The notes beneath the pieces are model-generated. The model saw nothing but the letters and a program-made list of their open reading frames with translations. It was not told the origin of the DNA and did no database searches. Source: Chthoniobacteraceae bacterium (lineage in GTDB: Bacteria > Verrucomicrobiota > Verrucomicrobiia > Chthoniobacterales > Chthoniobacteraceae). Taken from it: a DNA stretch of 64,000 nucleotides. The translations under genes were made by a program, and so were the position numbers. The stretch is from positions 38,210-102,209 of the forward strand of contig CANFTB010000009.1 in assembly GCA_947449735.1 (NCBI GenBank). The letters are read 5' to 3'. Below, piece by piece: positions 10,438 to 26,624 of this stretch (position 1 is its first letter; each line of letters opens with the position of its first letter).

Positions 10438-13400
10438 CTAGAACCGAACGCTGAACCCGACAGATGCACCCGGCTGGTTGCTGCCGTCCCGAATCTGCCA
10501 GTTGCCATTCAACCGGACGCTCGTCCGCTCACTCAGATCGAGGGTCGCACCCACTCCGAGTTCAATCGCGTCCGCACCGATCCGGGAACCGAGCGACTGG
10601 TAAGCTCCCACAGCGCTCGAGGCCTCTGTGAATTGCGTCATCGTGCCCAGCGGCTTGCTGTTGAAATCGTGTACCCAGTTCACAGAGGAAGAAAGCCCAA
10701 GCCCGTTACCGGCCACCTTGAACTTCCGAGATACCTCCGTCCCCATCCTCGTCTGCCAAGTATGCAGTGTCTTCCTCTGGGTCGAAACCGACAAAGGCCC
10801 AGCGCCGCTCTCGCTCAGTCCATCTTGGACCACTCCGCTCGAGACCAGAGAGAAGGACGGGACGATCGAGAAGCCCTGAACATTGCTGAAGTTCAAGCCA
10901 CCGCCCGCATGCGCCGAGTACTCGCTGGATTGGAACTTTGAGCGAGCCGTTCCTCCCAGGCCTCCCAGCGAAACATCACGCTTTACAGACTGGTCAGCGC
11001 TTCCCGCCAGAAATCCTGCGTTGAAGAACACTACTCCCAGATCAATGTTTGCGTAGGAGCCCCCATGGAAGCTGTCCACCGCAAGCGAAGAACCTGGATT
11101 GGAGAGGGTGGCCGACGAGTGGCCCGTCGCTCCCACAATTCCCAAGGTGAGGCTCTTCACAGTCTTCTGAACTCCAACGACGCCGCCAAAGGTATCTCCG
11201 TTCCATGAACTCGAAAGTCCCGCCGAGTTCTTGTGGAAGGACCACCCATAGGCCTCGCTCCATGCAGACCAACCGTCTACGCCGGCAACTCCTTGCGGGC
11301 TCAGGCGTCTCTGAATCGTCTCATCAATGGCGGATGTGCGACGCAGGGACAGGCGCTGGGCCTCAGAATAAACGGTGGAGGAGATGGACTTCAATGCAGC
11401 CTCCAACTGAGCCTGGTTCGTGGAGCTATCGATCACATTGATCAACGAAGTAAATGAAGTCGTGGGTGATGCAAAAGAGGCGCTGCTCAGGTAGTAACCC
11501 AGATTCTGCAGGCGCTGCGACGACACCTTCTGGCCATAGTTTGCCTTCTCTACCAAGATTCCCAGAGTGGTCCCCGAGGTCACCCAAGAGGTCGTGTAAA
11601 GATAACCCGGATTCGAAAGCTCCGGCAGGACGCTTCCGATCGTCAACGTCGTAGCGCTAAAAACGTTTGTAAAGGTGATCGAGGACGGCACCACCCCGGC
11701 AATAAACGTCACGCCACGAGAGTCGGTGCCGGTGTACGGAGTCACCACGATTCTCGCTCCAGTTGCGATCGTCAAGGTCCCGCCAACGACCACCTGATCC
11801 CACTCGTACTGCCCGTTGTCCGCACGGACACCGTACTCGATCTGCGTTACCGAGGAGGAATCCAGAGAGAGATTGCCACCAGAAAGTGCTCCTGTGGTTT
11901 TCGCAACCGTGAACAATCCAGGCGAATTCCCCGGCTTGAATGCTCCAGCCGTGCGCACAGAGCCGACAATGGTACCGCCGCCCATTAGGGATTGGGAACC
12001 GGCCAAGACGAGGCCGGACGAAAGCTGGCTTACATCGAGCACCGTGCGATCTGCGGCAGCCGAACCGACGCGCAATTCCGAAGTCCGAATCGATGCGGAA
12101 GTGCCCATGGTAACCCTGCCAGAGCCGGACAAGGCGAGCACACCATCACCGCTGACCGTACCAGGTAGGCTGATGTTCCCCGCGGAGGTATCCACGCCCA
12201 TCGGCTTCGTCGGGTCCTTGAGGTTGACGGTTCCAGCAGGCAGATCCGCGGTCACAGTGACACTCACCCCCTTCTCAACCACGAGCGTTCCAGCGAACGT
12301 GGCGCTGCTGCCCGCAAGCTTCACAGAACCGCTGTTCAGAGAAACAAGCCCGCTGGTGCCAGAAAGCGAGGGGAGCACTAGAGTGGAGGTTCCCGTCGGG
12401 TTGACGTTCACCACGGACGAGCCCGACAAACTAATCGTGGCGGACTTGTTGAAACTGCCAGTGAGCTCTGCGACGGCGCCCGATCCCAAAGAGGTTGTGC
12501 CCGTGTAGTCTGGGCTACTCACAAACTTGACGCTTCCACCGGCGACCACACTGATAGACCCGCTCCCTTTCACCGGCATCAATGCTGTCTGCGTTCCCGC
12601 GCCTGACGAAACACTGATCGTCCCTTCCGTCAATAGAGTCCCGGAAAAGCCAGTAAGCGTTGTTGAATAGTTCAGAACTCCACCAGACGACAGCACGATA
12701 AACGAGGAGCTCCCTCCTCCAATCAAGCCGGAGAAATTCTTGATGTCCACCTCGCCCGAAGTCGTATCCAGATTGATTTTCACACCGTCGTCCACTTGGG
12801 TGGCCCCGGATGCCTTGGACAACGAAAGCTCAGTGCCAGCCGCCATCTTCAACTGAGCGACAGCAACTTCGCCAGTAGCAGACACCGTTAAAATTCGACC
12901 AGAGCCGACATTCAGCAAAGAAACTTTGTCTGCAACGGCCTTTGGCAAGCGGAGCTCGGAGCCTGTTTCGCCGTCAAAAAGGATGGACACCCCTTGTGCG
13001 ATCGAATCGAGATTCGAGAGATTAAAATTACCGACCAGATCATGTGTTCCAAAGACTGACAAGGTGGCGCCCTTGGAGATGCTCAACTTGACAGCCGAGG
13101 AAAACGCACCCGTAGCACCTAAGGCTAGTTCTCCAGAGGTGACAGTAGCGGAAACAAAGTCAGCCGTTCCGCCGAGTGTAAACTTACCCGAACCGGCCTT
13201 GGTCAGTGTAGCGCCAGTCCCGGAGATCGATCCTGCGTAGATGCTGCTCTTCCCAGTCGCGCCAATCGTCAACTTGAAGTTGGCTGGCAGAGCGACACTC
13301 CCGTCCCCCGAGAGACCTCCAAGACTCGCCTCTGACGTGGTGAACTTGAGCGCTCCCCCAGAGGAGGACACGTTGACCGTGGCCCCCTTTAAAGCGTCGG

Positions 13401-15831
13401 CATGCGTTACCGAAACGGAGCCTCCACTGATCACGAGGCTTCCCGCAAACGAAGCGCTCGATCCGCCGACAACTAGGGTTCCAGTCGATCCATACTGCCC
13501 CACTTCCAGCACTCCCGTTCCCGAGATGCCAGCAGATACCGTGATCGTCCTTGACCCCATATCGAGCAAGCCTGCACCACTCACGATCAAAGAGCGCGCG
13601 AGTGTCAGGTCCTGGGTCCCGCTGTAGAGCAATCCGCCCCGCGTAAACGTCACCGGTCCGGTGGAGTCTCCCAAGTTGGCATCCTTAGTGAACTCAACAT
13701 TACCGCCTCCGGTAATCTCTGTGCCGCCGGTATAAGTGTTCAAGCCGCTGAGCCGTACTGTCCCGAACGGCTGCCCGGCGAGAGTCAGTCGACCGTCGCC
13801 TGAAATGACTCCGCTCACCTCTAAAACGTTTTCTCCAGCGTCCAGCTTACCCTCGTCCAGAAGGATGATCTTCGACGACAGTGTCGTGTCTGAACCAGCC
13901 TGTATCCCACCTCCTGCGGCGAGCGTGAAGCTCTGAGGCGAAATCCCGGTCGCATTCGAAAGCCTGAGAGTGACAGCTTCCACTGTCACATCACCGGAAA
14001 CATCACTGGCTCCAGAAAAGGTCAGGACCGACGTTGGTTGACCGGTGATCAACAGCGAGCCGCTGGCAGAAAGTGCTCCGGCTAATTCGACTGAATTGTC
14101 CCCAACGTGTATTCTCACACCCATGCCGTCAGTCACTGACTCCACGTTGATCGAGTTCAGCAAGCGAACGCTCTCATCAAAAGCCACGGTCGTTCCATCC
14201 TTGATCCATAGAGCACCTGTGCCGATCGGGGACGACACTATCGTGGACCCGTCCGTCACCGAAGAGGAAGCCAGCACAAGCACACCCTGGTCTAAATAAA
14301 CCCCTCCCGAAAAGGTGTTCGCGCCAGAAAGAGTCAACGTCTCCCGCCCCGTCTTGCAAAGCATGCCGGCACCCGAGATGACACCCCAAATGGTCTGATC
14401 CGCGACCGAATTTGTTGAGTCGATCGTCAACATTCCCGAGCCAATCTGCAAGTTGGCCAGCTTGGTGAAGTCGTTATTGCCTGCGAATGTGACATCGCCC
14501 GTTCCGGCGGGAATACTCAGCAAAAAGTTCTGGGTCCCCGCGTTCACCGCGGAATCCTTCCAGTTGATGGTCATCGTCCCACCGGTGTTTACGGCGATGG
14601 AACTGAAGTTCGCCAGCGCCCCGGTAATGATGGTGCCGGAATCCGTATTGATGCTCAGATTGTTGACCACACCCTCGATACCCGACGGGGTCAAGTCGCC
14701 CTGAACCGTCGCCCCATCAGTGAGGAACATGTTGTAGGTGTCCCCGCGGGCGGCAAGACCGTTCAGGAGGCTCGCTTTCGCCCATGTCTGCGTGTTTTGG
14801 GAGTACTGAGCACCCGTGTAGTCGGTGAGGCTGCGTCCGAACTGGTCCGTGTAAAGTTCACTCTTGGCCAAAGCGATCGCGTTCGCCGTCGCTGCAAAAA
14901 ACTCGACCGGAGCATTGATCAAGTTCTCGCTCGTAACGGTAGCGTTGTCATTCCACACCACCCTGTTGCGAAGAAAGTCCGCCCAATAGAATTCGATAAA
15001 ATTGACATCGGGCTTTGAGCTGAGCGATGAAGTCGAGTCAACCTTGGAGTATCCGACGATTTTCGTTCCGCTGACATTGGTTGCGGTTTTGACGATCCCA
15101 TCCACGGCACCCCAGGCCAGAGAGCGGTATAGGTCATTTATCATTGAGGATGTCCCCGGAGTGGTAGGCATCACAGTCGCCGACGGCATGATCGGCCGAA
15201 GCCCTGAGTACCCCGCATCCCCCGGCTGTGCCAGTTGGTTGCCGGACGCCCCGTAGAGATAGGCATTGTTGGTCGTCGCGAAATTGGTCCACATCTGGTC
15301 CCCGACGGCCGTTCCCGGGGACGGGTTAGCCACCGTTGTCCCCAGAACGATGTGATTCTTGCCGGCGATCAAAGGGCTGCCCTCGGTTGCCAAGTATCCA
15401 GCCGTCGTGTGATGGCCGTCCGTGATGTACCCGTTGCCGTCTATCCCAAGAACGATGGGGAGGTTCTTCTTGGTCCAGTACCCCGCAAGGGTGCTGCTCG
15501 TACTCAACGTCCCGTAGTTATAAACTGTGTTGTTCGAGGCGTCGGTCTCTGGGGTAACGGCCGTAAACGAAAGGGAACCAAAGAACTGCTTTTTGTAAAC
15601 CACCTCCCGGAAACCCAAGGAACGCTGAGTCGCCCGCAGCAAGGAGGCATCGGCATCCATGTAGACCATAGTCCCCGCAGGAAGCGTCGACGAAAATGGC
15701 TGGTAGTAGTTGCTATTGATGTAAAGCAACGTCTTGCCCGCAACACCCGTCGGGGCAGGAGCGGTGGGCAGCGTTGCAAACGCCAAACATCCCGCAGTGA
15801 GAAAAACAAATGAGGCCAGAGCGCGTTTCAT
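10438..15831 (-). CDS. Giant type V autotransporter with N-terminal ParB-like (ParBc_2-type) domain
   Basis: The 1797-residue protein has a signal peptide (MKRALASFVFLTAGCLAFAT). Residues ~30-330 are not beta-repeat: LPIVLGIDGNGYITDGHHTTAGYL carries the ITDGHH signature (Asp138-His140-His141) of the ParB-like nuclease family ParBc_2. The passenger then becomes a long Gly/Ser/Thr-rich beta-helix with autotransporter-associated beta-strand repeats such as SGANTFSGGVYLDQGVLVL and GLNTYTGGTEITGG. The last ~270 residues, from WSAWSEAYGW to the C-terminal FSVRF, form the outer-membrane beta-barrel with the typical terminal Phe. It probably displays the N-terminal domain on the cell surface. Location next to alkaline phosphatase suggests extracellular nucleic-acid use; that is inference. 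Confidence 0.85.
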   Translation of the reverse strand: MKRALASFVFLTAGCLAFATLPTAPAPTGVAGKTLLYINSNYYQPFSSTLPAGTMVYMDADASLLRATQRSLGFREVVYKKQFFGSLSFTAVTPETDASNNTVYNYGTLSTSSTLAGYWTKKNLPIVLGIDGNGYITDGHHTTAGYLATEGSPLIAGKNHIVLGTTVANPSPGTAVGDQMWTNFATTNNAYLYGASGNQLAQPGDAGYSGLRPIMPSATVMPTTPGTSSMINDLYRSLAWGAVDGIVKTATNVSGTKIVGYSKVDSTSSLSSKPDVNFIEFYWADFLRNRVVWNDNATVTSENLINAPVEFFAATANAIALAKSELYTDQFGRSLTDYTGAQYSQNTQTWAKASLLNGLAARGDTYNMFLTDGATVQGDLTPSGIEGVVNNLSINTDSGTIITGALANFSSIAVNTGGTMTINWKDSAVNAGTQNFLLSIPAGTGDVTFAGNNDFTKLANLQIGSGMLTIDSTNSVADQTIWGVISGAGMLCKTGRETLTLSGANTFSGGVYLDQGVLVLASSSVTDGSTIVSSPIGTGALWIKDGTTVAFDESVRLLNSINVESVTDGMGVRIHVGDNSVELAGALSASGSLLITGQPTSVLTFSGASDVSGDVTVEAVTLRLSNATGISPQSFTLAAGGGIQAGSDTTLSSKIILLDEGKLDAGENVLEVSGVISGDGRLTLAGQPFGTVRLSGLNTYTGGTEITGGGNVEFTKDANLGDSTGPVTFTRGGLLYSGTQDLTLARSLIVSGAGLLDMGSRTITVSAGISGTGVLEVGQYGSTGTLVVGGSSASFAGSLVISGGSVSVTHADALKGATVNVSSSGGALKFTTSEASLGGLSGDGSVALPANFKLTIGATGKSSIYAGSISGTGATLTKAGSGKFTLGGTADFVSATVTSGELALGATGAFSSAVKLSISKGATLSVFGTHDLVGNFNLSNLDSIAQGVSILFDGETGSELRLPKAVADKVSLLNVGSGRILTVSATGEVAVAQLKMAAGTELSLSKASGATQVDDGVKINLDTTSGEVDIKNFSGLIGGGSSSFIVLSSGGVLNYSTTLTGFSGTLLTEGTISVSSGAGTQTALMPVKGSGSISVVAGGSVKFVSSPDYTGTTSLGSGAVAELTGSFNKSATISLSGSSVVNVNPTGTSTLVLPSLSGTSGLVSLNSGSVKLAGSSATFAGTLVVEKGVSVTVTADLPAGTVNLKDPTKPMGVDTSAGNISLPGTVSGDGVLALSGSGRVTMGTSASIRTSELRVGSAAADRTVLDVSQLSSGLVLAGSQSLMGGGTIVGSVRTAGAFKPGNSPGLFTVAKTTGALSGGNLSLDSSSVTQIEYGVRADNGQYEWDQVVVGGTLTIATGARIVVTPYTGTDSRGVTFIAGVVPSSITFTNVFSATTLTIGSVLPELSNPGYLYTTSWVTSGTTLGILVEKANYGQKVSSQRLQNLGYYLSSASFASPTTSFTSLINVIDSSTNQAQLEAALKSISSTVYSEAQRLSLRRTSAIDETIQRRLSPQGVAGVDGWSAWSEAYGWSFHKNSAGLSSSWNGDTFGGVVGVQKTVKSLTLGIVGATGHSSATLSNPGSSLAVDSFHGGSYANIDLGVVFFNAGFLAGSADQSVKRDVSLGGLGGTARSKFQSSEYSAHAGGGLNFSNVQGFSIVPSFSLVSSGVVQDGLSESGAGPLSVSTQRKTLHTWQTRMGTEVSRKFKVAGNGLGLSSSVNWVHDFNSKPLGTMTQFTEASSAVGAYQSLGSRIGADAIELGVGATLDLSERTSVRLNGNWQIRDGSNQPGASVGFSVRF

Positions 15832-16147
15832 AGGGCGGCATTTGTTTAGCCACCGGCGCTCACAGCAAGCAAAAGCTTTACTGCAACAATTAAGAGGCAG
15901 CAGCGTTACAAAGCCTGCAACTACATGCCCTTCTTTGACTTAATTATTTCCCATTAGGTCTAAAATGGACCTGCACAACAGCCCAAAAAGGTCAAAAAAA
16001 CCACCGAATACATTCAAAGTAGCGCCATTCAGCCGCGCAGAAGTTTGAGCTACTGCTCCCTATTTTAGGTTCGGATTTATTCGCAATCGACCCAGTCGAA
16101 ATTCCATTCGCTTCCAAAAAAAACCCATTCCCACGCCAGCCGCTTTT
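15832..16147. other. Intergenic region upstream of the autotransporter gene
   Basis: This 316-bp stretch is clearly more AT-rich than its surroundings and carries A-runs and T-runs around 15980-16150. It must contain the autotransporter promoter and the end of the allophanate hydrolase transcript. I see no ORF, RNA gene or strong terminator hairpin. Confidence 0.5.
15904..15911 (-). promoter_or_regulatory. CGTTACAA motif upstream of the autotransporter gene
   Basis: It is identical to the 8-mer upstream of phoA and lies 72 nt before the autotransporter ATG in an AT-richer patch. Whether a regulator binds it is unknown. Confidence 0.25.
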
Positions 16148-17944
16148 TTATGCAGAATCTCTACTCGCCAGATAGGCCCGCCACCCGCCGAGGTGGGTAA
16201 TCTCTGTAGCACCCTCCAATGCCACGGGTTCGCACAAAAAGCCCTTCACCGTCGTTCCATCCAAAAGACTCACACTCCCGATCACCATCGGCGGAGGCAC
16301 CTCCGCCACAAACGAACCGAACGCTGACGGAGTCAGCGACCAGAGCTCGATCTCGATCCCTCCGCCAGCAGCGCCCGCCTGCCGTACCAGTCCGGGCTTG
16401 GCCGGCGTTGTGTTCGCAAGCGCAAAAAACCGGTAGTTCCTCGCAGTCCGTCCCGCCTTAACAAACTGTGCTCCCCGCGAAGTTAGCTGCCAGTTCAAAG
16501 GCTGTCCCGTCAGATGCGCCCCCACCACCGCCAGCAGCACCGATTCCTCCTTCGGAACAGGCACGTCGGGCTGGTCCACGATCATAGATTTTGTAATCCC
16601 AAGCGCACCTCCTACAGCCTTGTGCATTTGGTCCGCCAACGCAAGAAGCGCTCGGTCGCAGCCCGAGGGGGCAATGAGACTCACACCGAAGGGCAGCCCG
16701 CTCGGTCGCAGCCCCGCTGGAACCGCCACGGCTGCAAGATCCAACAGGTTAACAAAATTGGTATAAAAGCCCAAATTTGAATTCAGCGCGACGGGCTTTG
16801 CGCCGATCTCCCTGTGCGTATATGTGGTTCCCGTCGTCGGCAGCAGCAGCGCGTCCATCTTCGACCACTCCACCCTCGTCCGGGCCGCAAGCGCCCTGAG
16901 CTTGTAGGATGCTGCAAAGCAATCCACAGCGCTAAACCGCTCGCCTCCCGCTATAATCGAACGCACCGTTGGATCCATCGCCTCGTGGCTTTCTAAAAAA
17001 GCACCCACCGCATGCAACCGCTCCGCGACCCACGGGCCCTGATACAAAAGCTCCGCCGTCTCACGAAACGGTTTGAAGTTGATCTCCACCAGATAGCCGC
17101 CCACCTCCTCAATTCGCTCCTTGGCCCGCTCGAAAAGCGCCGCCGCCGCTACGTCTCCGAAAAACTCGCAGTCCCCCGGCGAGGGCACGCCGATGCGCGG
17201 CTTCCGGGGTAGGGTCCGCGGCACCAGTACGCGGGAAAAAGGATCCGTGGAATCCTCCGCAGCCGCGGCATCCATCACGATGCCCGCATCATAGCCGCTC
17301 CCCGCAAAGATCGACACACAGTCCAGCGAGCGGCACGCGGGAAACACTCCGGTCGTGCTCAAGGCTCCGAGCGACGGCTTCAGGCCCACGATTTGGTTAA
17401 AGGCTGCGGGGACCCTGCCCGACCCCGCGGTGTCCGTCCCGAGGGCAAATGCCACCTGCCCCGAAGCCACCGCCACGGCCGACCCGGAACTCGACCCTCC
17501 CGAGATGTAGGCCGAATGAAACACCGAGGCGCACGAACCATAGGGAGAACGGGTGCCAACCAGACCCGTCGCAAATTGGTCCATGTTCGTCTTTCCAATC
17601 GGAATGGCACCGGCCGCGATCAGACGCTCGACCACCGTCGCGGAGGACTCCGGCTGGAAGGCGAACGCAGGACAACCCGCGCTCGTTGGCACGCCTGCCA
17701 GGTCGATGTTGTCCTTGATGGCGAAGGGGATTCCAAAAAGTGGAAGCTTCTCAAATTGGACACGACCCAGACGACTCGCGTACCCGATGATCGCTTCCTC
17801 GTCCAGCATCGTGATCCATACATTCGGGTGCCTCCCGGCCGTCGCACGGCGCAGGCTCTCCAGGGCCACCTGCTCAGGCGACGCACGGCCCTCGCGATAA
17901 ATCTGGCGCAGGTTGGCGATGGTAAAAGCGGCTTTCTCCAGCAT
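16148..17944 (-). CDS. atzF: Allophanate hydrolase
   Basis: The 598-residue enzyme splits allophanate into ammonia and CO2, the last step of urea carboxylase or guanidine carboxylase pathways. The amidase-signature domain covers residues ~1-440: Lys77 in FAIKDN, the Ser-rich ISGGSSSGSA loop (148-155) and nucleophile Ser175 in GTDTAGSGRVPA form the Ser-cisSer-Lys triad. The C-terminal ~120 residues (from LLAVVGAHLTGQPLNWQL) are the AtzF C-terminal domain that completes allophanate turnover. It is the last gene of the operon, 24 nt after the carboxylase. Unlike fused yeast DUR1,2, the two activities are separate polypeptides. Confidence 0.93.
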   Translation of the reverse strand: MLEKAAFTIANLRQIYREGRASPEQVALESLRRATAGRHPNVWITMLDEEAIIGYASRLGRVQFEKLPLFGIPFAIKDNIDLAGVPTSAGCPAFAFQPESSATVVERLIAAGAIPIGKTNMDQFATGLVGTRSPYGSCASVFHSAYISGGSSSGSAVAVASGQVAFALGTDTAGSGRVPAAFNQIVGLKPSLGALSTTGVFPACRSLDCVSIFAGSGYDAGIVMDAAAAEDSTDPFSRVLVPRTLPRKPRIGVPSPGDCEFFGDVAAAALFERAKERIEEVGGYLVEINFKPFRETAELLYQGPWVAERLHAVGAFLESHEAMDPTVRSIIAGGERFSAVDCFAASYKLRALAARTRVEWSKMDALLLPTTGTTYTHREIGAKPVALNSNLGFYTNFVNLLDLAAVAVPAGLRPSGLPFGVSLIAPSGCDRALLALADQMHKAVGGALGITKSMIVDQPDVPVPKEESVLLAVVGAHLTGQPLNWQLTSRGAQFVKAGRTARNYRFFALANTTPAKPGLVRQAGAAGGGIEIELWSLTPSAFGSFVAEVPPPMVIGSVSLLDGTTVKGFLCEPVALEGATEITHLGGWRAYLASRDSA

Positions 17945-17968
17945 AGGACAATCCAGAATTTTGAGATT

Positions 17969-20900
17969 TCAGCTCCGTTCACCTCCGCCGGCCACGAGCA
18001 CCAGGAGGGTCTGACCCGGCTCTGCCCGACTTCCCTTGCTGCATAGCACCTGGTGAACCCGGCCCGCGCACGGCGCAGCTAGAATCGTCTCCATCTTCAT
18101 CGACTCCAGCACCACCAGTTTCTGCCCCTCCTCCACCGCGTCGCCCTCCCCAACCAGCAGCTCCCATATGCTCCCGGGCAAATGCGCACGCACAAACGTC
18201 CCTCCCGGAGGCAATTTCACCTCGCTGATCTGCGGCTCGGGTTCGACGACGGAATCCACAACGTTCTGTCCGGCGTCCGCCCAGCGCTGCCGTTCTTCGG
18301 AAAACGCCCCGCGCTGCTGCTGCCGGAACGCTGAGATACCCGGAGCGTTCTGCTCCAGAAACGCCTGATAATCAGCAAGCCTGAAGGTTGTCTCCTCCAC
18401 CTTGATCTGAAAGCGGCCAGTCAGAAAATCTTCGCGATGCCGCAACAGCTCCTCGGCGCTCACCGGATAAAAACGGATCTGGTCGAAGAAACGGAGCAAC
18501 CACGGCTTGCCCGCCTGGAAATCGCGGGTGGTGCGGTGCGTGTTCCAAACCTGCACGGTACGTCCCACGAACTGGTACCCTCCCGGCCCTTCCATCCCGT
18601 AGATGCACATGTAAGCGCCGCCGATTCCGACGGCATTTTCCGGAGTCCACGTTCTCGCGGGATTGTACTTGGTCGTCACCAGGCGGTGGCGTGGATCCAA
18701 GGGCGTCGCCACGGGCGCGCCGAGATAAACATCCCCCAGACCGAGCACGAGATAGCTCGCGTTGAAAACAATGTCGCGCACCTCGTCGATGCTCGCGAGT
18801 CCATTGATACGCCGGATGAATTCGAGGTTGCTTGGGCACCAGGGTGCGTCTGCTCGAACGGATTGCATGTACTTATCAATCGCAAGCCGGGTCGCAGGAT
18901 CGTCCCATGAAAGCGGCAAATGTACGATGCGTGAAGGCACCTCAATTGCATCCAGTCCGGGCAGCATCTCCTCCGCCTGCAGCAAGGCCTCCATCAACCT
19001 CCCGGTGGAAAGCACCCGGGAATCATAGTGAATCTGGAGCGAGCGAATGCCCGGCGTCAGGTCTATCACCCCCGACTGAGGATGCTTTTCAAGCCACTGC
19101 ATGAGCGCATGCACCCGGAAGCGCAGCGCCAAATCCAGCACCAGCGGCCCGTACTCCACGAGCAGATACTTGTCGCCCGCACGCCTGTAGCACACGGCGG
19201 GACGTTCGTCTGTTTGAGAAAGCTCCCATTGAATGGCGTCCTCTACGGGCAGCCTCAGCCGTCCCAAAGGCTCAGCAGACGGCAGCGGCACGAGACCGGC
19301 GATCTCTGCGTCCTGGCGCAGTTCGGACGCGTTCGCCTCCGCCATGGTAACAGGAACAAACCTTACCGTGTCTCCGGGCTTGAGCTGGCCGATCTTCCAA
19401 AGTTCGCTTTGAACAATACAGGCGGGGCACACAAAGCCGCCCAAGCTCGGTCCATCCGGTCCGAGGATGATCGGCATGTCGCCCGTAAAATCAATCGCCC
19501 CCACGGCATAGGCGTTGTCGTGGATGTTTGAAGGATGCAATCCCGCCTCACCTCCGTCTGCTCTCGCAAACTGCGGCTTCGGGCCGATTAAACGTACGCC
19601 GGTCCGGTTGGAGTTGTAGTGCACCTTCCAGTCGGTGCTGAACAGCATCTCAACATCATCTGGCGTGAAAAAATCCGGCGCGCCGTGCGGTCCATAAAGA
19701 GCGCCGATCTCCCAATGACGCCTGTAGACGGGCACCAGTTCCCCGGGCAGCGCAAGCTCATCAGCCGGCCGGCCCGCACCGCCCAAATGCAGCACATCGC
19801 CCATGCGTAACGCCCGGCCACCGTGGCCGCCAAAGTTCCCAAGTGTGAAGGTAGCGCGGCTTCCCAGATACAAAGGAGCCTCAAACCCGCCCTCAACCGC
19901 CAAATAGGCCCGGGCCCCATGTCCAGCCGCAGCCCCCATCACGAGCGTCCCGCCCTTGGGGACCACAATCGCAGTCCACAACGGCACCGCTGCCCCGTCG
20001 AGCGTCGCGCCCATGTCCGCGCCCGCAAGCGCGATCCGACACGGCGCGTTAAAGCGCAGCGACGGGCCGGTCATCGTGACCTCCAACCCTGCAGCAGCCT
20101 CAGGATTGCCAAGTAACCGGTTTGCAATACGGAACGCCAACGGGTCCATCGGTCCGGACGGCGGCACCCCCACCGCCCAGTATCCGAGGCGGCCGGGATA
20201 ATCCTGCAGCGTCGTCTGCGCCCCTGCATCCAAAACGTCGACAGATCTAGGGTCGTAAGAAAAGGAACTGAGGTAACCGGTTGTCACCTCTCCTCTTTCG
20301 AAAGTCTCCGCCGCCACAACCGACTTCAAATATCCGAGGTTGGATTCAATTCCATCGAATGCTGAACCATCGAGCGCTGCGCGCATCTTCGCTATGGCAC
20401 CGATACGGTCCTCTCCAAGCACGATGATCTTTGCGATCATCGGGTCGTAATAGGGAGTCACCTCGGACCCGCTCTCCACCCAGGTCTCGCACCGGACAGC
20501 CTCCGGCAGGACGACGCGCGTCAACAAGCCGCAGCTCGGCTGGAAGTTCTTGCGTGCATCCTCCGCGTACACGCGCACCTGGATGGAGTGCCGCTTCGGG
20601 GCGTGCTTGTAAACAGCTAAAAATGAATCGTCTCCCGCCGCCAGACGCACCATCCATTCCACAAGATCGATCCCGCACACTTCCTCGGTCACGCCGTGCT
20701 CCACCTGCAGACGCGTGTTCACCTCGAGGAAATAAAACGCGCCAGCGTCCGCATCGAAAACAAACTCCACCGTGCCCGCGGAACGATAGTTCACAGCACC
20801 TCCCAACCGGACGGCCGCAGCCGAAAGCTCGGCACGCTGCCCCTCCGTGAGGCCCGGCGCCGGAGTCTCCTCCACAACCTTTTGGTTGCGGCGCTGGGCG

Positions 20901-21586
20901 GAACAATCCCGCTCCCCGAGGGAGATGACCCGCCCCTTTCCGTCTCCAAAAATCTGCACCTCGATGTGCCTCGCCCGGGCCACAAACTTCTCCAAAAACA
21001 ACCCAGACTCCTTGAAGTTGCTGGCGCTCAACCGCTGGACCGAATCAAAGGCCTCCCCAAGCTCAGCAGCATCCCGGCAAACGCGCATCCCGATCCCGCC
21101 CCCACCCGCCGTGCTCTTGAGCATGACGGGATATCCGATCCGGTCTGCCTCGGTCAGGGCGTGCGGCACACCGCTTAAGATGCCCGTTCCAGGAAGCAGT
21201 GGAACACCCTGCGCCGCAGCAATTTCACGAGCAGTGTGCTTGAGTCCAAAGTCGCGCATCTGCGCCGGCGTCGGTCCAATAAACGCGAGACCCGCGGCTT
21301 CGCACGCCTCAGCAAACTCCGGGTTCTCGCTCAAAAAACCGTAGCCGGGATGCACGGCCTGCGCGCCCGTCTGCGCCGCAGCGGCCAGAATACGTTCCAC
21401 TCTGAGGTAGCTATCCGAAACGGCGGCGGCCCCGAGTAGGACAGCGTCATCCGCGTCGCTAACGTGCAGGGAGCGCGAGTCGGCTTCCGAGTACACAGCA
21501 ACGCTGGAAACACCGAGCTTGCGCAAGGTTCGTGTGATGCGCCTAGAAATCGCGCCCCTGTTCGCTATGAGAACCTTGGAGAACAT
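17969..21586 (-). CDS. uca: Biotin-dependent urea/guanidine carboxylase
   Basis: The 1205-residue protein has a biotin carboxylase N-terminus ([17 protein letters not shown], ~1-450), a carboxyltransferase part built from KipI/KipA-like AHS1 and AHS2 domains (~460-1100), and a C-terminal biotinyl domain with VLESMKMET, Lys1164 being the biotin site. I start at the ATG at 21586 because it shares one base with the upstream TGA and begins the canonical sequence; an in-frame ATG at 21670 adds 28 atypical residues. Many proteins annotated as urea carboxylase next to paired DUF1989 genes have been shown to be guanidine carboxylases, so guanidine is the likelier substrate. Sequence alone does not settle it. 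Confidence 0.92.
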
Positions 21587-22227
21587 CACGGCCAGAGAAG
21601 TATGCGCACGGGCGTCGGGTTGTATGCGTTGCACGGGTTGTTCAACTGCGGGCAGTTGGAAATGAGGCACACCACGTCCATCTCCGCCCGCATCTCGACG
21701 TAACGTCCGCTACCCGACACACCGTCCTCAAAGGTCAATCCTCCCTCTTCAGTGACCGGAACGTTCATAAAGAAATTGATATTGTGGGTGATGTCGCGCT
21801 TGGTCCAGCCGGGCTGCCACTGACGAATGCCGCGCAAAAAGCTGTCCCTGCAGGCGTGCATCGAGCGCTTCTCGAGGGCGTAACGCACCATGTTACTTTC
21901 GCACGAACATGCCCCCCCAAGCGTGTCGTGCCGCCCGCATGTGTCGGCTGTGATGGTTAAAAGGGCGTTGCCCCTCGTCGACATTAGCCGCGTCCCAGTG
22001 CTCAGATAAAGCCCCCCCTGCCCGCGGATGGTATCTTGGGCGCTGTACCGCTCCGCCGGATCATGCGCGTTGTAGAAAAGAGTGTCGGCGGCCTGGTTGC
22101 CCTCCAAATCGACGATACGCAATGTCTGCCCCGCCTTGATTCCATGCATCCACGGCTCGCCCGCGGGAAGCGTGAACTCGTAGACGGCGTCAGCCGGGTT
22201 GAGCGGACTTTCAATCAATGCACTCAT
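21586..22227 (-). CDS. DUF1989 protein, carboxyguanidine deiminase subunit (UAAP2-like)
   Basis: The 213-residue protein belongs to the urea-amidolyase-associated (DUF1989) family. Pairs of these, called CgdA and CgdB, deiminate carboxyguanidine to allophanate. Visible motifs are [40 protein letters not shown] and [20 protein letters not shown], whose Cys/His cluster fits a metal site. Its start overlaps the upstream DUF1989 gene by ATGA, and its stop overlaps the carboxylase start by one base, so subunit stoichiometry is probably coupled in translation. Which of the two paralogues is CgdA or CgdB I cannot tell. Confidence 0.88.
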
Positions 22228-22949
22228 AGGAAGTAACGTCGGGTGATTTCAAATCCTCTCGTGTTCTCCGCACAGGAAGTGCGGCAGCGGTCGTCCCCGG
22301 CAGGTGGCGGTGAAGTCCACACGGATAACTCCACCGGCTGGGGCGCGTAAGTCGGCGACGGATCCAGCGGGTGGACGCAGGTGTTGAGGACGACGAGCGT
22401 GTTCATCTCCGCACGCAAATCGACATGCATCCCTGCTTTCGAATGGCCCTCGTGAAAGCGCAGTCTGCCCTCCTTGTCGGCGGTCACCTTGGCGAAGAGG
22501 TTCACGTTCATCGCCAGGTCGCGTTCGTCCATGCCGTACTTCCCAAGTTCTGTGAGAAAGCTGTCCCGGCCGTTCCGGTGGAATGCGTTCCGCGCCTCCT
22601 GGTAGCGGAGCGCACCGTATTTAAGAAGCACCTCCTGTTCGCTGGAGCAGCCTGAGAGCGGATCGTGCCAGCCGCACGTGTCGTCCGTGATCGATACAAG
22701 GATCCGGCCCATATCCGAATATAGGCAGTGTCCCGCCGTCAGGCGCGCCGTGTGCTGGCACTTTAGAGTGTCGGGCAGGTTGAGGCGCTCGCCCAATATC
22801 TCAAAATTGTAGAAGAGCGCCGAAACGTTGGCCCCCTCACCCAGCGATTTCACCCGCAGGGTTGTCCCGCGTTTGAGGACGTGTGACCAACTCGCACCGG
22901 CAGATACTTGCTCGATGAAACGCACAAGGGATAGGTCGATCTCAGCCAT
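22224..22949 (-). CDS. DUF1989 protein, carboxyguanidine deiminase subunit (UAAP1-like)
   Basis: This is the longer of the two paralogues (241 residues). It has the family layout: [39 protein letters not shown] and [19 protein letters not shown] with the conserved Cys-Gly-x-His-Asp...Cys cluster, then a NVNLFAKV segment and a C-terminal [15 protein letters not shown]. The paralogue pair is expected to form the heteromeric deiminase. It begins 3 nt after the stop of the NikR-like regulator gene and overlaps the next gene by 4 nt, the typical arrangement of these operons. Confidence 0.88.
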
Positions 22950-22952
22950 GGT

Positions 22953-23396
22953 TTAGTAAATGGGAGGCAGAAGCGTGGAGGTGACGTTGAGGTGCCCATG
23001 CTTGACCCCCTTGCAGGCGATCAGTTCGTCGGCGATGCGCTTCAATCGTTCGCCAGGCCCCTGCGCAAGGATGACTTCCAGGCTGTGGTGGTTCTCGAGA
23101 TGCACGCGCTGCGAGGTGATGATCTCCTTCAGGTACTGGTGCTGGATCCTGATCAGGCGCCCCTGAAGCCCCGGCTTTGCGTGGTCGTAAATGAGCGTGA
23201 TCGTGGCGGCTAGCACCTCCTTGCCAAACTGCTGTGCATGACGGACGAGCTGCCCGCTGATCATCTTTGAAATCGCCTCCGACCGGCTTGCATAGCCGCG
23301 CTCCTCCACCATGGCATCCAGATTTACCAGCAACGACTCAGGCAATGAAATGCTGATGCGCGCCGCCGGGCTGGGCTTTTGAAGTTTTGCGCTCAT
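22953..23396 (-). CDS. NikR-like ribbon-helix-helix/ACT regulator with altered nickel site
   Basis: The 147-residue protein (ATG at 23396; a GTG two codons earlier is possible) has an N-terminal ribbon-helix-helix (ARISISLPESLLVNLDAMVEERG, then RSEAI) and the C-terminal ACT-like NikR domain ending CKGVKHGHL. It aligns without gaps to E. coli NikR across the metal region. The equivalents of Ni ligands His76 and His89 are kept (His86, His99), but His87 is Arg97 and Cys95 is Ser105. It is therefore probably not a standard nickel sensor. It is first gene of the carboxylase operon and faces two NikR-type operators, so it likely controls both divergent operons. Confidence 0.88.
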   Translation of the reverse strand: MSAKLQKPSPAARISISLPESLLVNLDAMVEERGYASRSEAISKMISGQLVRHAQQFGKEVLAATITLIYDHAKPGLQGRLIRIQHQYLKEIITSQRVHLENHHSLEVILAQGPGERLKRIADELIACKGVKHGHLNVTSTLLPPIY

Positions 23397-23444
23397 GAGC
23401 ACACTCTTTTAGCAGGCAGCGTGCTAGCTCCGCCCCGGCGGCGG

Positions 23445-23472
23445 GTGTGAAGAACAACTTTTTTCCTCATAC
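23445..23472. promoter_or_regulatory. NikR-type operator 1 (GTGTGA-N16-TCATAC)
   Basis: GTGTGA at 23445-23450 and TCATAC at 23467-23472 are separated by exactly 16 bp. This is the spacing and, with one base changed in the left half, the sequence of the E. coli NikR operator GTATGA-N16-TCATAC. The flanking base is also symmetric (G left, C right). It lies about 50 bp before the regulator gene start. Confidence 0.7.
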
Positions 23473-23532
23473 CGGAACCACCCCTCCGGCCTGTCGTGTT
23501 TTAACCACCCAGCCTGCTCGATTTTGAACACA

Positions 23533-23560
23533 GTGTGAGAATTCGCGTGAATCCTCATAC
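23533..23560. promoter_or_regulatory. NikR-type operator 2 (GTGTGA-N16-TCATAC)
   Basis: A second site with the same half-sites and the same N16 spacing lies 88 bp from the first. Its flanking bases are also symmetric (A left, T right). It sits centrally between the two divergent operons, about 140 bp from either start codon. Two independent copies make chance very unlikely. Confidence 0.72.
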
Positions 23561-23703
23561 TCAGCAAGGCTCTCTGGAGCCGCGCTTAAAGGCCGGGTGC
23601 GGTCAGTTTCCAGTGTGGACGCGCTGTTTCTCGCCCCCGGCTGCCTCATTGGCACGCAGGCTGCGATAGCCCTGACCCGGTTAGTCCTTCCTTTCTCAAA
23701 ACT

Positions 23704-24672
23704 ATGAAACTAAAAAGCACACTCGCACTGCTGTTGAGCCTCCTCGCCGCCGGCGGACTCCAAGCCGAGCCGCTCAAAATCGCGTACTCCGACTGGCCGG
23801 GGTTCACCATCTTCGAACTGGCCAAGCAAAAGGGCTGGTTCAAGGACGCCGGGCTAGACGTGGAGCTCGTCTGGTTTGAATACCTCCCCTCCATCGACGC
23901 CTTTTCCGCAGGCAAGGTAGACGCGGTGACCATCGTGGGCACGGACGCGCTGGTCGCGGGGGCGAACGGAGCAAAGAGCAAGTTCGTCGCACTCCTCGAT
24001 TACAGCGAAGGCAGCGACATGATCATCGGCGCGCCGGGCATCAAATCCATCAAGGACCTCAAAGGTAAAAAAGTCGCCGTCGAGACAACTCTGGTAGAGC
24101 ACCTGCTGCTGCTCAAAGCACTCGAAGAAAACGGCATGACGCAGGCGGACGTGGAACTGGTAAACACCGCCACCGACAAGATGCCCGAGACCCTGGCCTC
24201 CGGCAAAGTGTCCGCGGTGGGGGCGTGGTATCCCATCTCCGGAAATGCGCTCAAGCAGGTCTCGGGATCCAAGGCGCTCTTCACAAGCGCCAGCGCGAAG
24301 GGGCTGATCTACGACGTACTCGCCGTCAGTCCAAGCAGTTACGGCAAGCACAAGGAGGAGTGGGCCAAGATCGCGGGTATTTATTACAAGTGTGTGGATT
24401 ACTTGAAGGACCCGAAGACCAAGAAGGAGGCCATCAAGATCATGGCGGCGAAGGTGGGCGCTGACGCCTCCGACTACGCCAAAAACGTTCCCGGCACGCA
24501 CTTTCTCACTCTGGAAGAAGCCAAGGCCGCCGTTAAAAAGGGGCCCGGACTCGACTCCATCTACGGCTCCCTCACGGTGGGCGACAAATTCAACTTGGAG
24601 AACAAGGTATATAAGTCCGCCCAGAAGCCGGAAAGCTACGTCCTGCCGAACCTGATCAACGACCTGAAGTAG
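23704..24672 (+). CDS. ABC importer substrate-binding protein (urea carboxylase-region family)
   Basis: The 322-residue protein has a signal peptide (LALLLSLLAAGGLQAEP) and an NMT1/SsuA/TauA-like periplasmic binding fold: LKIAYSDWPGFTIFELAKQKGWFKDAGLDVELVWF split over residues 22-56, SIDAFSAGKVDAVTIVGTDA and IKDLKGKKVAVE. This subfamily is regularly encoded beside urea/guanidine carboxylases, and the ligand here is probably guanidine or urea. It is the first gene of the plus-strand operon, with the permease 9 nt downstream. Its promoter lies in the region with the two NikR-type sites. Confidence 0.9.
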   Translation: MKLKSTLALLLSLLAAGGLQAEPLKIAYSDWPGFTIFELAKQKGWFKDAGLDVELVWFEYLPSIDAFSAGKVDAVTIVGTDALVAGANGAKSKFVALLDYSEGSDMIIGAPGIKSIKDLKGKKVAVETTLVEHLLLLKALEENGMTQADVELVNTATDKMPETLASGKVSAVGAWYPISGNALKQVSGSKALFTSASAKGLIYDVLAVSPSSYGKHKEEWAKIAGIYYKCVDYLKDPKTKKEAIKIMAAKVGADASDYAKNVPGTHFLTLEEAKAAVKKGPGLDSIYGSLTVGDKFNLENKVYKSAQKPESYVLPNLINDLK

Positions 24673-24681
24673 GTTTCCTTC

Positions 24682-25722
24682 ATGGCCACGGCGCACCGCG
24701 ACTGGTTGGGATTGAAGGCGGAGCTGCCGCGCAAGCGGCGGACGCAGCTCACGCTGCTTTCCTTCCTTCTGCCTCTCGGCCTGTGGTGCGTCGTGAGCTA
24801 CGTTCCGTGGATATGGCACCCCCTGGTCCGCATCACCAGTCCGGGCGAGGTAGACTATTTCACGGAGGACCTCGACGTTCCGCGGGGTGATTTCACCTCC
24901 GAGTGCGCAAAGGCGCGTGCGGCCGGACAGACGCTTCCGGAGGGTGTCCGGGTGAACCCCGTTTACCTTCCTCCGCCGCACGCTGTCGCGCGCGCCTTTG
25001 TCACAGCCTTCCAGACTCCTCCACGGCTTCCCAATGAACCGTGGCTGCACCAAAGCCTTGGCCACAGCATACGCACCATCGTCTGGGGCTTCGTTGCGTC
25101 ATCACTGCTTGGGCTTCCGCTGGGCATCTTATGCGGCACCTACCGCTTCGCAGCCAGGCTCCAGGAGCCTTTCATCGAGTTTTTCCGCTACCTTCCGGCG
25201 CCTGCATTCGGGGCGCTGTGCGTTGCGGTGCTTGGGATCGACGACGCCCCGAAGGTGGCGATTATCTTTGTAGGCACCTTTTTCCAACAGGTGCTCGTGA
25301 TCTCCAATACCGTGCGCAAAGTCGATCCGGCCCTGATCGAGGCCTCCCAAACTCTCGGCGCCAGGGGATGGAAGCTTGTGCGGCGGGTGATCATCCCGGC
25401 GTCCGTGAGCGACATCTACACCGACATGCGGATCCTGCTCGGCTGGGCCTGGACTTACCTGATCGTGGCCGAGGTCGTCGGGACAATGTCCGGCATCACC
25501 TATTTCATCAACCAGCAGGCCCGCTACCGCAACTTTGACAACGTGTACGCGGCGATTGCGATGATCGGTATCATCGGCTTCTCCAGCGACCTCTTTCTAG
25601 CCTGGCTGGGGAGCGTTCTGTTTCCTTGGAAGCGCAAATCCCGCGGAACATCCGGCATCGCGAAGCACAGTTTGTCCACAAGTGCTTCTCCCTCCTTGGA
25701 AGCAACTGTCCAGACCCCATGA
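24682..25722 (+). CDS. ABC importer permease
   Basis: The 346-residue BPD-type permease has a first membrane span ([21 protein letters not shown]) followed by an unusually long non-membrane insert of ~60 residues before the transport domain. The EAA loop is visible as [22 protein letters not shown], which contacts the ATPase. Several further spans follow, including [21 protein letters not shown]. It overlaps the ATPase gene by 4 nt (ATGA). It belongs to the SsuC/TauC-like group seen with carboxylase loci and presumably moves the same substrate as the binding protein. Confidence 0.9.
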
Positions 25723-26624
25723 GCGCTAGAACCTCGGATCCAGAGGCCTATTTGAGGCAGCCCGCTGGTGTCGCGGAGCGCTTCGAGCGCATCCGGCAGA
25801 GGCCAGTGATCCTGAGCGTGCGGCATTTAAGCAAGGATTTCGAGTCCGACGGACACAGACGCCCAGTCTTTGAGGGACTCACTCTGGACATCCACCGGCG
25901 CGAGTTCATCTGCGCGATCGGGCCTTCAGGGTGCGGCAAGTCGACCCTGGCGCGCATAGTGGCGGGTCTGGACGAGGCGAGCGGTGGGGAGGTGCTGCTC
26001 GACGGCGCACTCGTGACCGGGCCGGGCCCGGACCGCGGAATGGTGTTCCAGGGCTACACGCTTTTTCCGTGGCTCACGGTGAAGGCGAACGTGATGTTCG
26101 GTCTGGAGATGGGCGGTCAGGCGCCTGCCATCGCAGAACAAGAAGCCCGCCAGTGGCTTGACATGGTGGGGCTGGGAAAGTTCGAGAACGCTTACCCGCA
26201 TGAATTATCGGGCGGCATGAAGCAGCGGGTGGCCATTGCTAGGGCCCTCGCCAACGGACCCCGCATCCTTATCATGGACGAACCCTTCGGCGCACTGGAC
26301 GCCCAGACACGCGCCCAGATGCAGGGCTATCTGCTGCAAATCTGGCGCAAGGTGGACGTCACCATCCTGTTCATCACGCACGACCTCGACGAGGCAGCCT
26401 ACCTTTCGGACCGCATTCTGGTGATGGGGGCGAATCCGGGTCGGGTCGTGGAGTTTATCGAGAATCCGGTGCCCCGGCCGCGGAGTGCAGAGCAATTTCA
26501 GTCACCCGAATTTCTTGCACTGAAGAGACGTCTGGAAGAACACATTCATCCTCCGATGGAAGTCGAAGAAGTAGATCTTCTTCCCATGGTGAAACTCACG
26601 CACGCAGACGACGAGGTCGAGTGA
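25719..26624 (+). CDS. ABC importer ATPase
   Basis: The 301-residue nucleotide-binding subunit energises the importer. Walker A is GPSGCGKST, the Q-loop region reads [13 protein letters not shown], the ABC signature is [15 protein letters not shown], and Walker B is [13 protein letters not shown], followed by the switch His in ITHDLDEA. I start at the ATG at 25719, overlapping the permease stop; the open frame extends upstream inside the permease gene but that part is not ABC-like. About 25 extra residues precede and 35 follow the core domain. Confidence 0.92.

What the first reader, a model, noticed from the sequence alone, without database searches (positions are those of the whole stretch)
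16148..26624. Probable guanidine-assimilation locus under a NikR-like regulator instead of a riboswitch
A tight minus-strand operon (NikR-like, two DUF1989 genes, biotin carboxylase, allophanate hydrolase; junctions overlap or are ≤24 nt) faces a three-gene ABC importer. Established work on DUF1989 pairs (carboxyguanidine deiminase) shows that carboxylases with such partners use guanidine. Such loci are often controlled by guanidine riboswitches. Here I see none, but a regulator gene heads the operon and two matching operators lie between the units. A protein-sensed guanidine or nitrogen circuit would be new to me.
Basis: partly seen in the sequence, partly recalled or inferred. Interest (0 to 1): 0.85.

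Follow-up and report, generated by a model that had tools for sequence, protein, structure and literature searches.

The report
Nickel-blind NikR runs guanidine-assimilation genes
Bacteria of two phyla keep, beside their genes predicted to use guanidine as a nitrogen source, a relative of the nickel sensor NikR that has lost part or all of the set of nickel-binding residues; it is predicted to sense guanidine or a breakdown intermediate and would then be a protein switch for a job that a recent review credits only to RNA riboswitches.

Summary
The window protein has lost two of NikR's four nickel ligands (H87→R99, C95→S107). In the phylum places I read, 37 of 37 NikR-like proteins at guanidine-carboxylase loci lack the ligand set HHHC; 32 of 33 others keep it. 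The 57 linked proteins form one clade (100/99) that includes Alpha- and Gammaproteobacteria; C95 is lost in all 57, all four ligands in 10. NikR's operator geometry is kept: two perfect GTGTGA-N16-TCATAC sites here; over 58 upstream regions, 20 perfect sites at spacer 16 and none at 12 other spacers. In three genomes a distant importer carries the same operator. In two Acinetobacter loci an operator stands before a guanidine-I riboswitch. The carboxylase has the guanidine-type Asp in 28 of 28 loci. Predicted mechanism: a NikR-derived repressor released by guanidine or a pathway intermediate. Ligand and sign of control are inferred. Open-access literature searches showed no report.

The parts
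22953..23402 (-). NikR-like ribbon-helix-helix regulator; E. coli nickel ligands H76/H87/H89/C95 read H88/R99/H101/S107
   Evidence: AlphaFold2 pLDDT 83.7, pTM 0.59; the 50 Foldseek matches shown are NikR entries
22224..22949 (-). DUF1989, UAAP1 (predicted carboxyguanidine deiminase subunit)
   Evidence: TIGR03425 329.8 bits against cut-off 205.95; PF09347
21586..22227 (-). DUF1989, UAAP2 (predicted second carboxyguanidine deiminase subunit)
   Evidence: TIGR03424 336.8 bits against cut-off 284.7; PF09347
17969..21586 (-). biotin-dependent carboxylase of guanidine type by sequence (annotated urea carboxylase); Asp at K. lactis positions 1330 and 1584 (D727 and D980 counted from the mechanical start 21670)
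   Evidence: TIGR02712 1854.9 bits against cut-off 1303.85
16148..17944 (-). allophanate hydrolase
   Evidence: TIGR02713 771.6 bits against cut-off 511.05
23445..23472 (.). operator sequence O1, GTGTGA-N16-TCATAC, 48 nt from the ATG of the NikR-like gene
   Evidence: conserved in relatives
23533..23560 (.). operator sequence O2, GTGTGA-N16-TCATAC, 143 nt from the ATG of the SBP gene
   Evidence: a perfect site at a similar place in L059
23704..24672 (+). ABC importer substrate-binding protein (NMT1/SsuA-like)
   Evidence: PF09084; below the cut-off of TIGR03427, 124.7 against 333.9
24682..25722 (+). ABC importer permease
   Evidence: PF00528
25719..26624 (+). ABC importer ATPase (start chosen at the ATG overlapping the permease stop)
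   Evidence: PF00005; junction read

Best explanation
The head gene encodes a NikR-family protein that has lost two of the four nickel ligands and is predicted to bind the two NikR-type operator sequences between the operon and the importer, where it likely represses both until guanidine or an intermediate of its breakdown, the likely ligand, releases it. Shown by the calls: operon, operator sequences, broken nickel ligand set, clade, co-conservation, guanidine-type carboxylase residues. Inferred: DNA binding, repression rather than activation, and the ligand. Predicted steps: guanidine enters; it, carboxyguanidine or allophanate binds the remodelled C-terminal domain, where Q114 (57 of 57), E103 (54 of 57) and E93 (47 of 57) mark the clade and are rare or absent in nickel sensors; the DNA-binding arms lose their grip on the two half-sites; importer, carboxylase, deiminase pair and allophanate hydrolase are made together; ammonia is released and, in some relatives, would pass to a co-encoded type III glutamine synthetase.
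For: Nickel site: in the order, 16 of 16 NikR-like genes next to a DUF1989 pair lack HHHC and 6 of 6 unlinked ones have it; one further gene, cut by a contig end (L024), has no C95 position to read. In the phylum, 37 of 37 linked lack HHHC and 32 of 33 unlinked have it (Fisher p 3.8e-19, relatedness not corrected; two of the 37, G000 and G009, are also in the order set, and L128/L129 are near-duplicates). C95 is lost in 57 of 57 linked proteins. Clade: linked 57 against 41 canonical need one change, support 100/99. Operators: 20 perfect sites at spacer 16, none at spacers 10-15 and 17-22, in 58 upstream regions; no site with 11 or more of 12 matches in 7 DUF1989-pair loci without the regulator, one of them only 3 kb long. 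Distant targets: in G009 and G029 (other contig) and G020 (45 kb away) a perfect site precedes an importer with 58-69% identical SBP, followed by a type III glutamine synthetase gene or part of one. Guanidine: Asp in 28 of 28 carboxylases; in two Acinetobacter loci an operator sequence and a guanidine-I riboswitch (77.6 and 82 bits) precede the same genes; one of these also has a 2OG-Fe(II) oxygenase beside a hypothetical gene, recalling the methylguanidine pair of PMC12508155 (passages).
Against: No ligand, binding or expression data. 27 of 58 upstream regions have no N16 site with 11 of 12 matches; some of these hold close variants, others nothing recognisable. In G014, which has both a canonical and a linked protein, the linked locus has no site and the three perfect sites lie elsewhere. 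Of 23 genomes of the order with an adjacent DUF1989 pair, 7 lack the regulator, have the same carboxylase Asp in the 6 where it could be read, and show no riboswitch either, so the pathway can do without it. No sigma-70-like promoter was found near the operators, so repression or activation cannot be read off. The motif also stands before several canonical nikR genes, so it does not by itself mark the new clade. E93 also occurs in 3 canonical proteins.
Confidence: 0.62

Rival explanations
1. The regulator reads general nitrogen status, such as glutamine or 2-oxoglutarate bound by the ACT-like C-terminal domain, and guanidine use is one output.
For: A type III glutamine synthetase gene lies in the same operator-bearing importer operons. 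In Acinetobacter a guanidine riboswitch already gives guanidine specificity, leaving room for a second signal. ACT-like domains often bind amino acids (recalled).
Against: Perfect sites are few: 1-4 in each of the 14 regulator-bearing genomes with any, none in 3. The off-locus sites whose surroundings I read, other than the distant importers, have no recognisable nitrogen or guanidine gene beside them. A nitrogen-status regulator would be expected to hold more targets.
Confidence: 0.2
2. It is still a metal switch: under nickel shortage it turns on the nickel-free route as a substitute for urease.
For: The window protein keeps two of the four ligand His (H88, H101) and H74; some members keep HHH and lose only Cys (HHHY, HHHS); the window genome and 9 of 15 other linked genomes searched have urease alpha.
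Against: HHHC in 0 of 57; RHQR, RQMN, QHQV and AHFS types keep at most one of the four ligands yet have the same linkage. 6 of 16 linked genomes show no urease alpha and 15 of 16 no NiFe hydrogenase (drafts, so absence is weak). The carboxylase is guanidine-type, not urea-type, by sequence.
Confidence: 0.08
3. A ligand-free repressor that only autoregulates and damps the operon, with true induction by another factor.
For: The old ligand site is very variable in the clade (24 patterns at four positions), as if no small molecule bound exactly there.
Against: The C-terminal domain is conserved elsewhere (Q114 and L120 57 of 57, E103 54 of 57), which a mere scaffold might not need.
Confidence: 0.1

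Closest known systems
NikR, nickel-responsive regulator (E. coli, H. pylori, P. horikoshii)
   Same: Ribbon-helix-helix plus NikR_C domain and fold; half-sites and N16 spacing of the E. coli operator GTATGA-N16-TCATAC (PMC7055735 passages). The H. pylori consensus TRTTA-N15-TAWTA has similar half-sites one base closer (PMC5385501 passages).
   Different: Ligand set H76, H87, H89, C95 not kept; separate clade; targets are guanidine genes; proline-bearing C-terminal tail (P146 invariant, P147 in 50 of 57).
Guanidine riboswitch-controlled guanidine carboxylase operons (e.g. Raoultella, Vreelandella; PMC12186494 and PMC12508155, passages)
   Same: Same enzymes and an ABC importer.
   Different: No guanidine riboswitch here or in the order's linked loci scanned; a protein regulator with operator sequences instead.
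Acinetobacter guanidine loci L114 and L117
   Same: NikR-like regulator of the same clade and NikR-type operator sequences.
   Different: A guanidine-I riboswitch follows the operator before the deiminase-carboxylase genes.

Membership tests
NikR superfamily (RHH plus NikR_C) | RHH_1 and NikR_C domains, NikR fold | tested here: met
   PF08753 92.9 bits, PF01402 26.9 bits, both over cut-off; the 50 Foldseek matches shown are NikR
Nickel-responsive NikR (functional family) | His, His, His, Cys nickel ligands | tested here: not met
   H88, R99, H101, S107; 0 of 57 clade members HHHC
Nickel-responsive NikR (functional family) | NCBI name models | tested here: inconclusive
   NF003381 134.9 against cut-off 105 and NF002815 96.1 against 83 pass, TIGR02793 84.4 against 175.45 fails; a relative with RHQR also passes NF003381, so that model does not test nickel binding
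Nickel-responsive NikR (functional family) | palindromic operator with N16 spacing | tested here: met
   sequence only; binding untested
Nickel-responsive NikR (functional family) | nickel-dependent DNA binding | not testable with these tools
   needs purified protein
Guanidine carboxylase | TIGR02712 plus Asp at K. lactis 1330 and 1584 (rule of PMC11410670) | tested here: met
Guanidine carboxylase | activity on guanidine over urea | not testable with these tools
   needs purified enzyme
Carboxyguanidine deiminase CgdAB | adjacent pair of DUF1989 proteins of the UAAP1 and UAAP2 types | tested here: met
   both over curated cut-offs; the CgdA/CgdB tree test of PMC11410670 was not repeated
Guanidine riboswitch-controlled locus | guanidine riboswitch in the leader | tested here: not met
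   the same search finds guanidine-I in L114 and L117

The most novel reading that the evidence does not exclude
A nickel sensor was turned into a guanidine sensor: the clade is the first guanidine-responsive transcription factor family, spread over Verrucomicrobiota and Proteobacteria, binding guanidinium through new conserved Glu/Gln residues (E93, E103, Q114) beside the dismantled nickel site, and in Acinetobacter it acts in series with a guanidine-I riboswitch so that protein and RNA read the same molecule.
Probability: 0.42. Interest if true: 0.9.

Novelty: new variant of a known kind. Interest (0 to 1): 0.8.

Why it matters
[quoted passage not shown] This clade gives a concrete, widespread candidate with defined operator sequences and targets, so the question becomes testable. 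It shows how a metal sensor can keep its operator while its metal site decays. It also shows that a name model for nickel-responsive NikR accepts proteins without the nickel ligand set.

Tried and rejected
Urea-carboxylase reading: rejected on the Asp positions. Riboswitch in the window leader: none. A sigma-70 promoter or terminator near the operators: none found. Off-locus operator matches in the window genome: C41 lies inside a long open frame and C29 has no guanidine gene of the window's kinds beside it; taken as chance. Guanidine-I in the order: one sub-threshold match in G065 (35.8 bits against 63), not followed. The SMR gene in L114 scores below every NCBIfam cut-off listed, SugE included, so it is not claimed as a guanidine exporter.

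What was left out of counts. Of the places listed, 70 were read: the 30 loci it gave and 40 that I picked from lower ranks, not at random; the rest, mostly weaker, were not read, and the list itself is cut. In the tree L122, L123 and L129 were dropped as duplicates or near-duplicates, and L118, L120 and L191 were put in no group. L058 and L059 match L002 and L001 in contig length and content, so only one of each pair is counted; L194 and L197 (near-duplicates) are both counted. The operator pattern was fixed on the order's loci before the phylum and proteobacterial loci were fetched, so the order's counts are partly circular: on the 42 other loci, 8 have a perfect N16 site and 18 one with at least 11 of 12. 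Of 66 plasmid records with a match, 10 were opened: 7 are guanidine loci, and 3 (L115, L118, L120) show none of the window's other genes.
Full report
What is there. The carboxylase most likely starts at 21586 and the importer ATPase at 25719, which makes three junctions overlapping. The window lies in contig C9 of an unnamed 4.18-Mb draft genome.

Guanidine, not urea. PMC11410670 (passages) separates guanidine from urea carboxylases by Asp at K. lactis position 1330 and also requires Asp at 1584. The window enzyme has Asp at both (D727, D980), as do all 28 carboxylases read, the window's included, in loci with and without the regulator. The two DUF1989 proteins pass the curated UAAP2 and UAAP1 cut-offs; PMC11410670 treats such pairs as carboxyguanidine deiminase.

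No riboswitch. Rfam finds none in the window. None was found in the order's regulator-linked stretches that were scanned (L058 was left out), nor in the seven DUF1989-pair loci without the regulator. Guanidine-I reaches its cut-off in 0 of 197 genomes of the order. The method works: it finds guanidine-I in two Acinetobacter loci.

The regulator has lost the nickel ligand set. E. coli NikR binds nickel with His87, His89, Cys95 and His76 of a neighbour (PMC7055735, passages). The window protein has R99, H101, S107 and H88. Among 120 listed homologues plus the query, position 95 is Ser 112 times and Thr 9 times, never Cys. In the order, 23 NikR_C places in 22 of 197 genomes divide into 16 next to a DUF1989 pair (none HHHC), 6 elsewhere (all HHHC) and one cut by a contig end. 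One genome, G014, holds both kinds. Of 23 genomes with an adjacent DUF1989 pair, 16 have the regulator beside it and 7 do not. In the phylum, 140 of 387 genomes have a match; 70 places were read: 32 adjacent to DUF1989 plus 5 divergent from an importer that leads on to DUF1989 genes make 37 linked, none HHHC; of 33 unlinked, 32 are HHHC and one (L191) is not.

One clade. With canonical and linked proteins from these searches and seven proteobacterial ones, the 57 linked proteins are one side of one branch (100/99) against 41 canonical (three odd rows in no group). In the drawn tree the first-branching linked group has HHHY in five of six members, so the cysteine may have gone first; 10 of 57 keep none of the four ligands. 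Clade-marking residues are E93 (47 of 57), E103 (54), Q114 (57; Arg or Lys in 40 of 41 canonical), L120 (57) and P147 (50). AlphaFold2 gives a NikR-like monomer (pLDDT 83.7, pTM 0.59) and the Foldseek matches shown are NikR entries. The nickel site lies between subunits, so the monomer model cannot show the pocket.

Operators. E. coli NikR binds GTATGA-N16-TCATAC. The window has two perfect GTGTGA-N16-TCATAC sites. In 58 upstream regions of linked genes, perfect GTRTKA-N16-TMAYAC sites number 20 (in 19 regions) and there are none at any other spacer from 10 to 22; regions with at least 11 of 12 matches number 31 at N16 and 0-3 at the others. Some regions without such a site hold close variants such as GTAATA-N16-TATTAC. 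The same motif stands before several canonical nikR genes, so the DNA-binding half seems to have kept its target while the sensing half changed. Where importer and regulator are not divergent neighbours, the importer can have its own site: L065, L067 and, with one mismatch, L068, and the distant importers of G009, G029 (another contig) and G020 (45 kb away). Those operons also hold a type III glutamine synthetase gene, cut by the contig or stretch end in L104; in G009 it has a further site in front.

Other phyla. A protein search of plasmid records (66 with a match) leads to the same regulator-deiminase-carboxylase-hydrolase order in Novosphingobium, Sphingobium and Asticcacaulis. In two Acinetobacter records the regulator heads the allophanate hydrolase gene, with a perfect or one-mismatch site before each of three predicted transcription units, the perfect one about 35 nt before a guanidine-I riboswitch. 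Ligand patterns in these seven are AHFS, LHFS, QHQV and QHQI. Three of the five alphaproteobacterial guanidine loci have no site with 11 of 12 in the upstream region tested besides the near variants (L113, L119, L121; L116 has its sites after the first regulator gene).

Mechanism. I commit to a repressor that binds without metal and is released by guanidine or a pathway intermediate. Shown: genes, operator sequences, broken ligand set, linkage, clade. Inferred: binding, sign, ligand. Arg at an old ligand position (R88 in 28 of 57, R99 in 5 of 57) may stand in for the metal's charge and hold the DNA-binding form; this is a guess. The clade-marking Glu and Gln residues are the proposed guanidinium contacts, also a guess.

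Novelty. Searches for NikR with guanidine and carboxylase, with urea amidolyase, and with urea carboxylase found 0, 0 and 2 papers; passages of those two describe no such locus, and one matched only an author's name. A search on guanidine, transcription factor, riboswitch and carboxyguanidine held 60 papers, of which the 20 listed show nothing of the kind by title and start of abstract; one on Acinetobacter guanidine regulation listed 3 and one on nickel-independent NikR 2, again not this. The library is open-access only.

Noticed in passing
L103:10584-11945 (G009), L104, L105, L192-L194, L197, L064, L076, L077: A type III glutamine synthetase gene (TIGR03105 606 bits against 469.6 in L103; the others by similarity) travels with the guanidine importer or operon in several lineages; in G009 it has its own perfect N16 site.
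   Followed up: partly
L118:8001-8474, L120:8001-8492: Another NikR branch with a broken ligand set (HLRS, HLRG) and a His-rich tail on Sphingobium and Novosphingobium plasmids, with none of the window's other genes beside it; perfect GTATGA-N16-TCATAC sites lie 0.8 and 2.9 kb downstream.
   Followed up: no
L116:11974-12483 and near 15543-15953: Novosphingobium resinovorum plasmid locus with two NikR-like genes, one on each side of the importer.
   Followed up: no
L076-L082: Seven DUF1989-pair carboxylase loci of the order with neither the NikR-like gene nor a riboswitch; their control is unknown.
   Followed up: partly
L056:3411-3703 (G015:C16): Urease alpha lies about 5 kb from the NikR-like gene; the Rfam 5' ureB sRNA model matches the same stretch.
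   Followed up: no
window 22953-23402 and L060:10180-10644: NCBIfam NF003381 'nickel-responsive NikR' accepts proteins without the nickel ligand set.
   Followed up: yes
L191 (G251:C37): A lone, very divergent NikR-like protein with pattern NRTS, with none of the window's other genes within about 9 kb.
   Followed up: no
window 10438-15831: A 1797-aa ORF with repetitive beta-strand-like sequence beside the locus, looking like an autotransporter (judged by eye).
   Followed up: no
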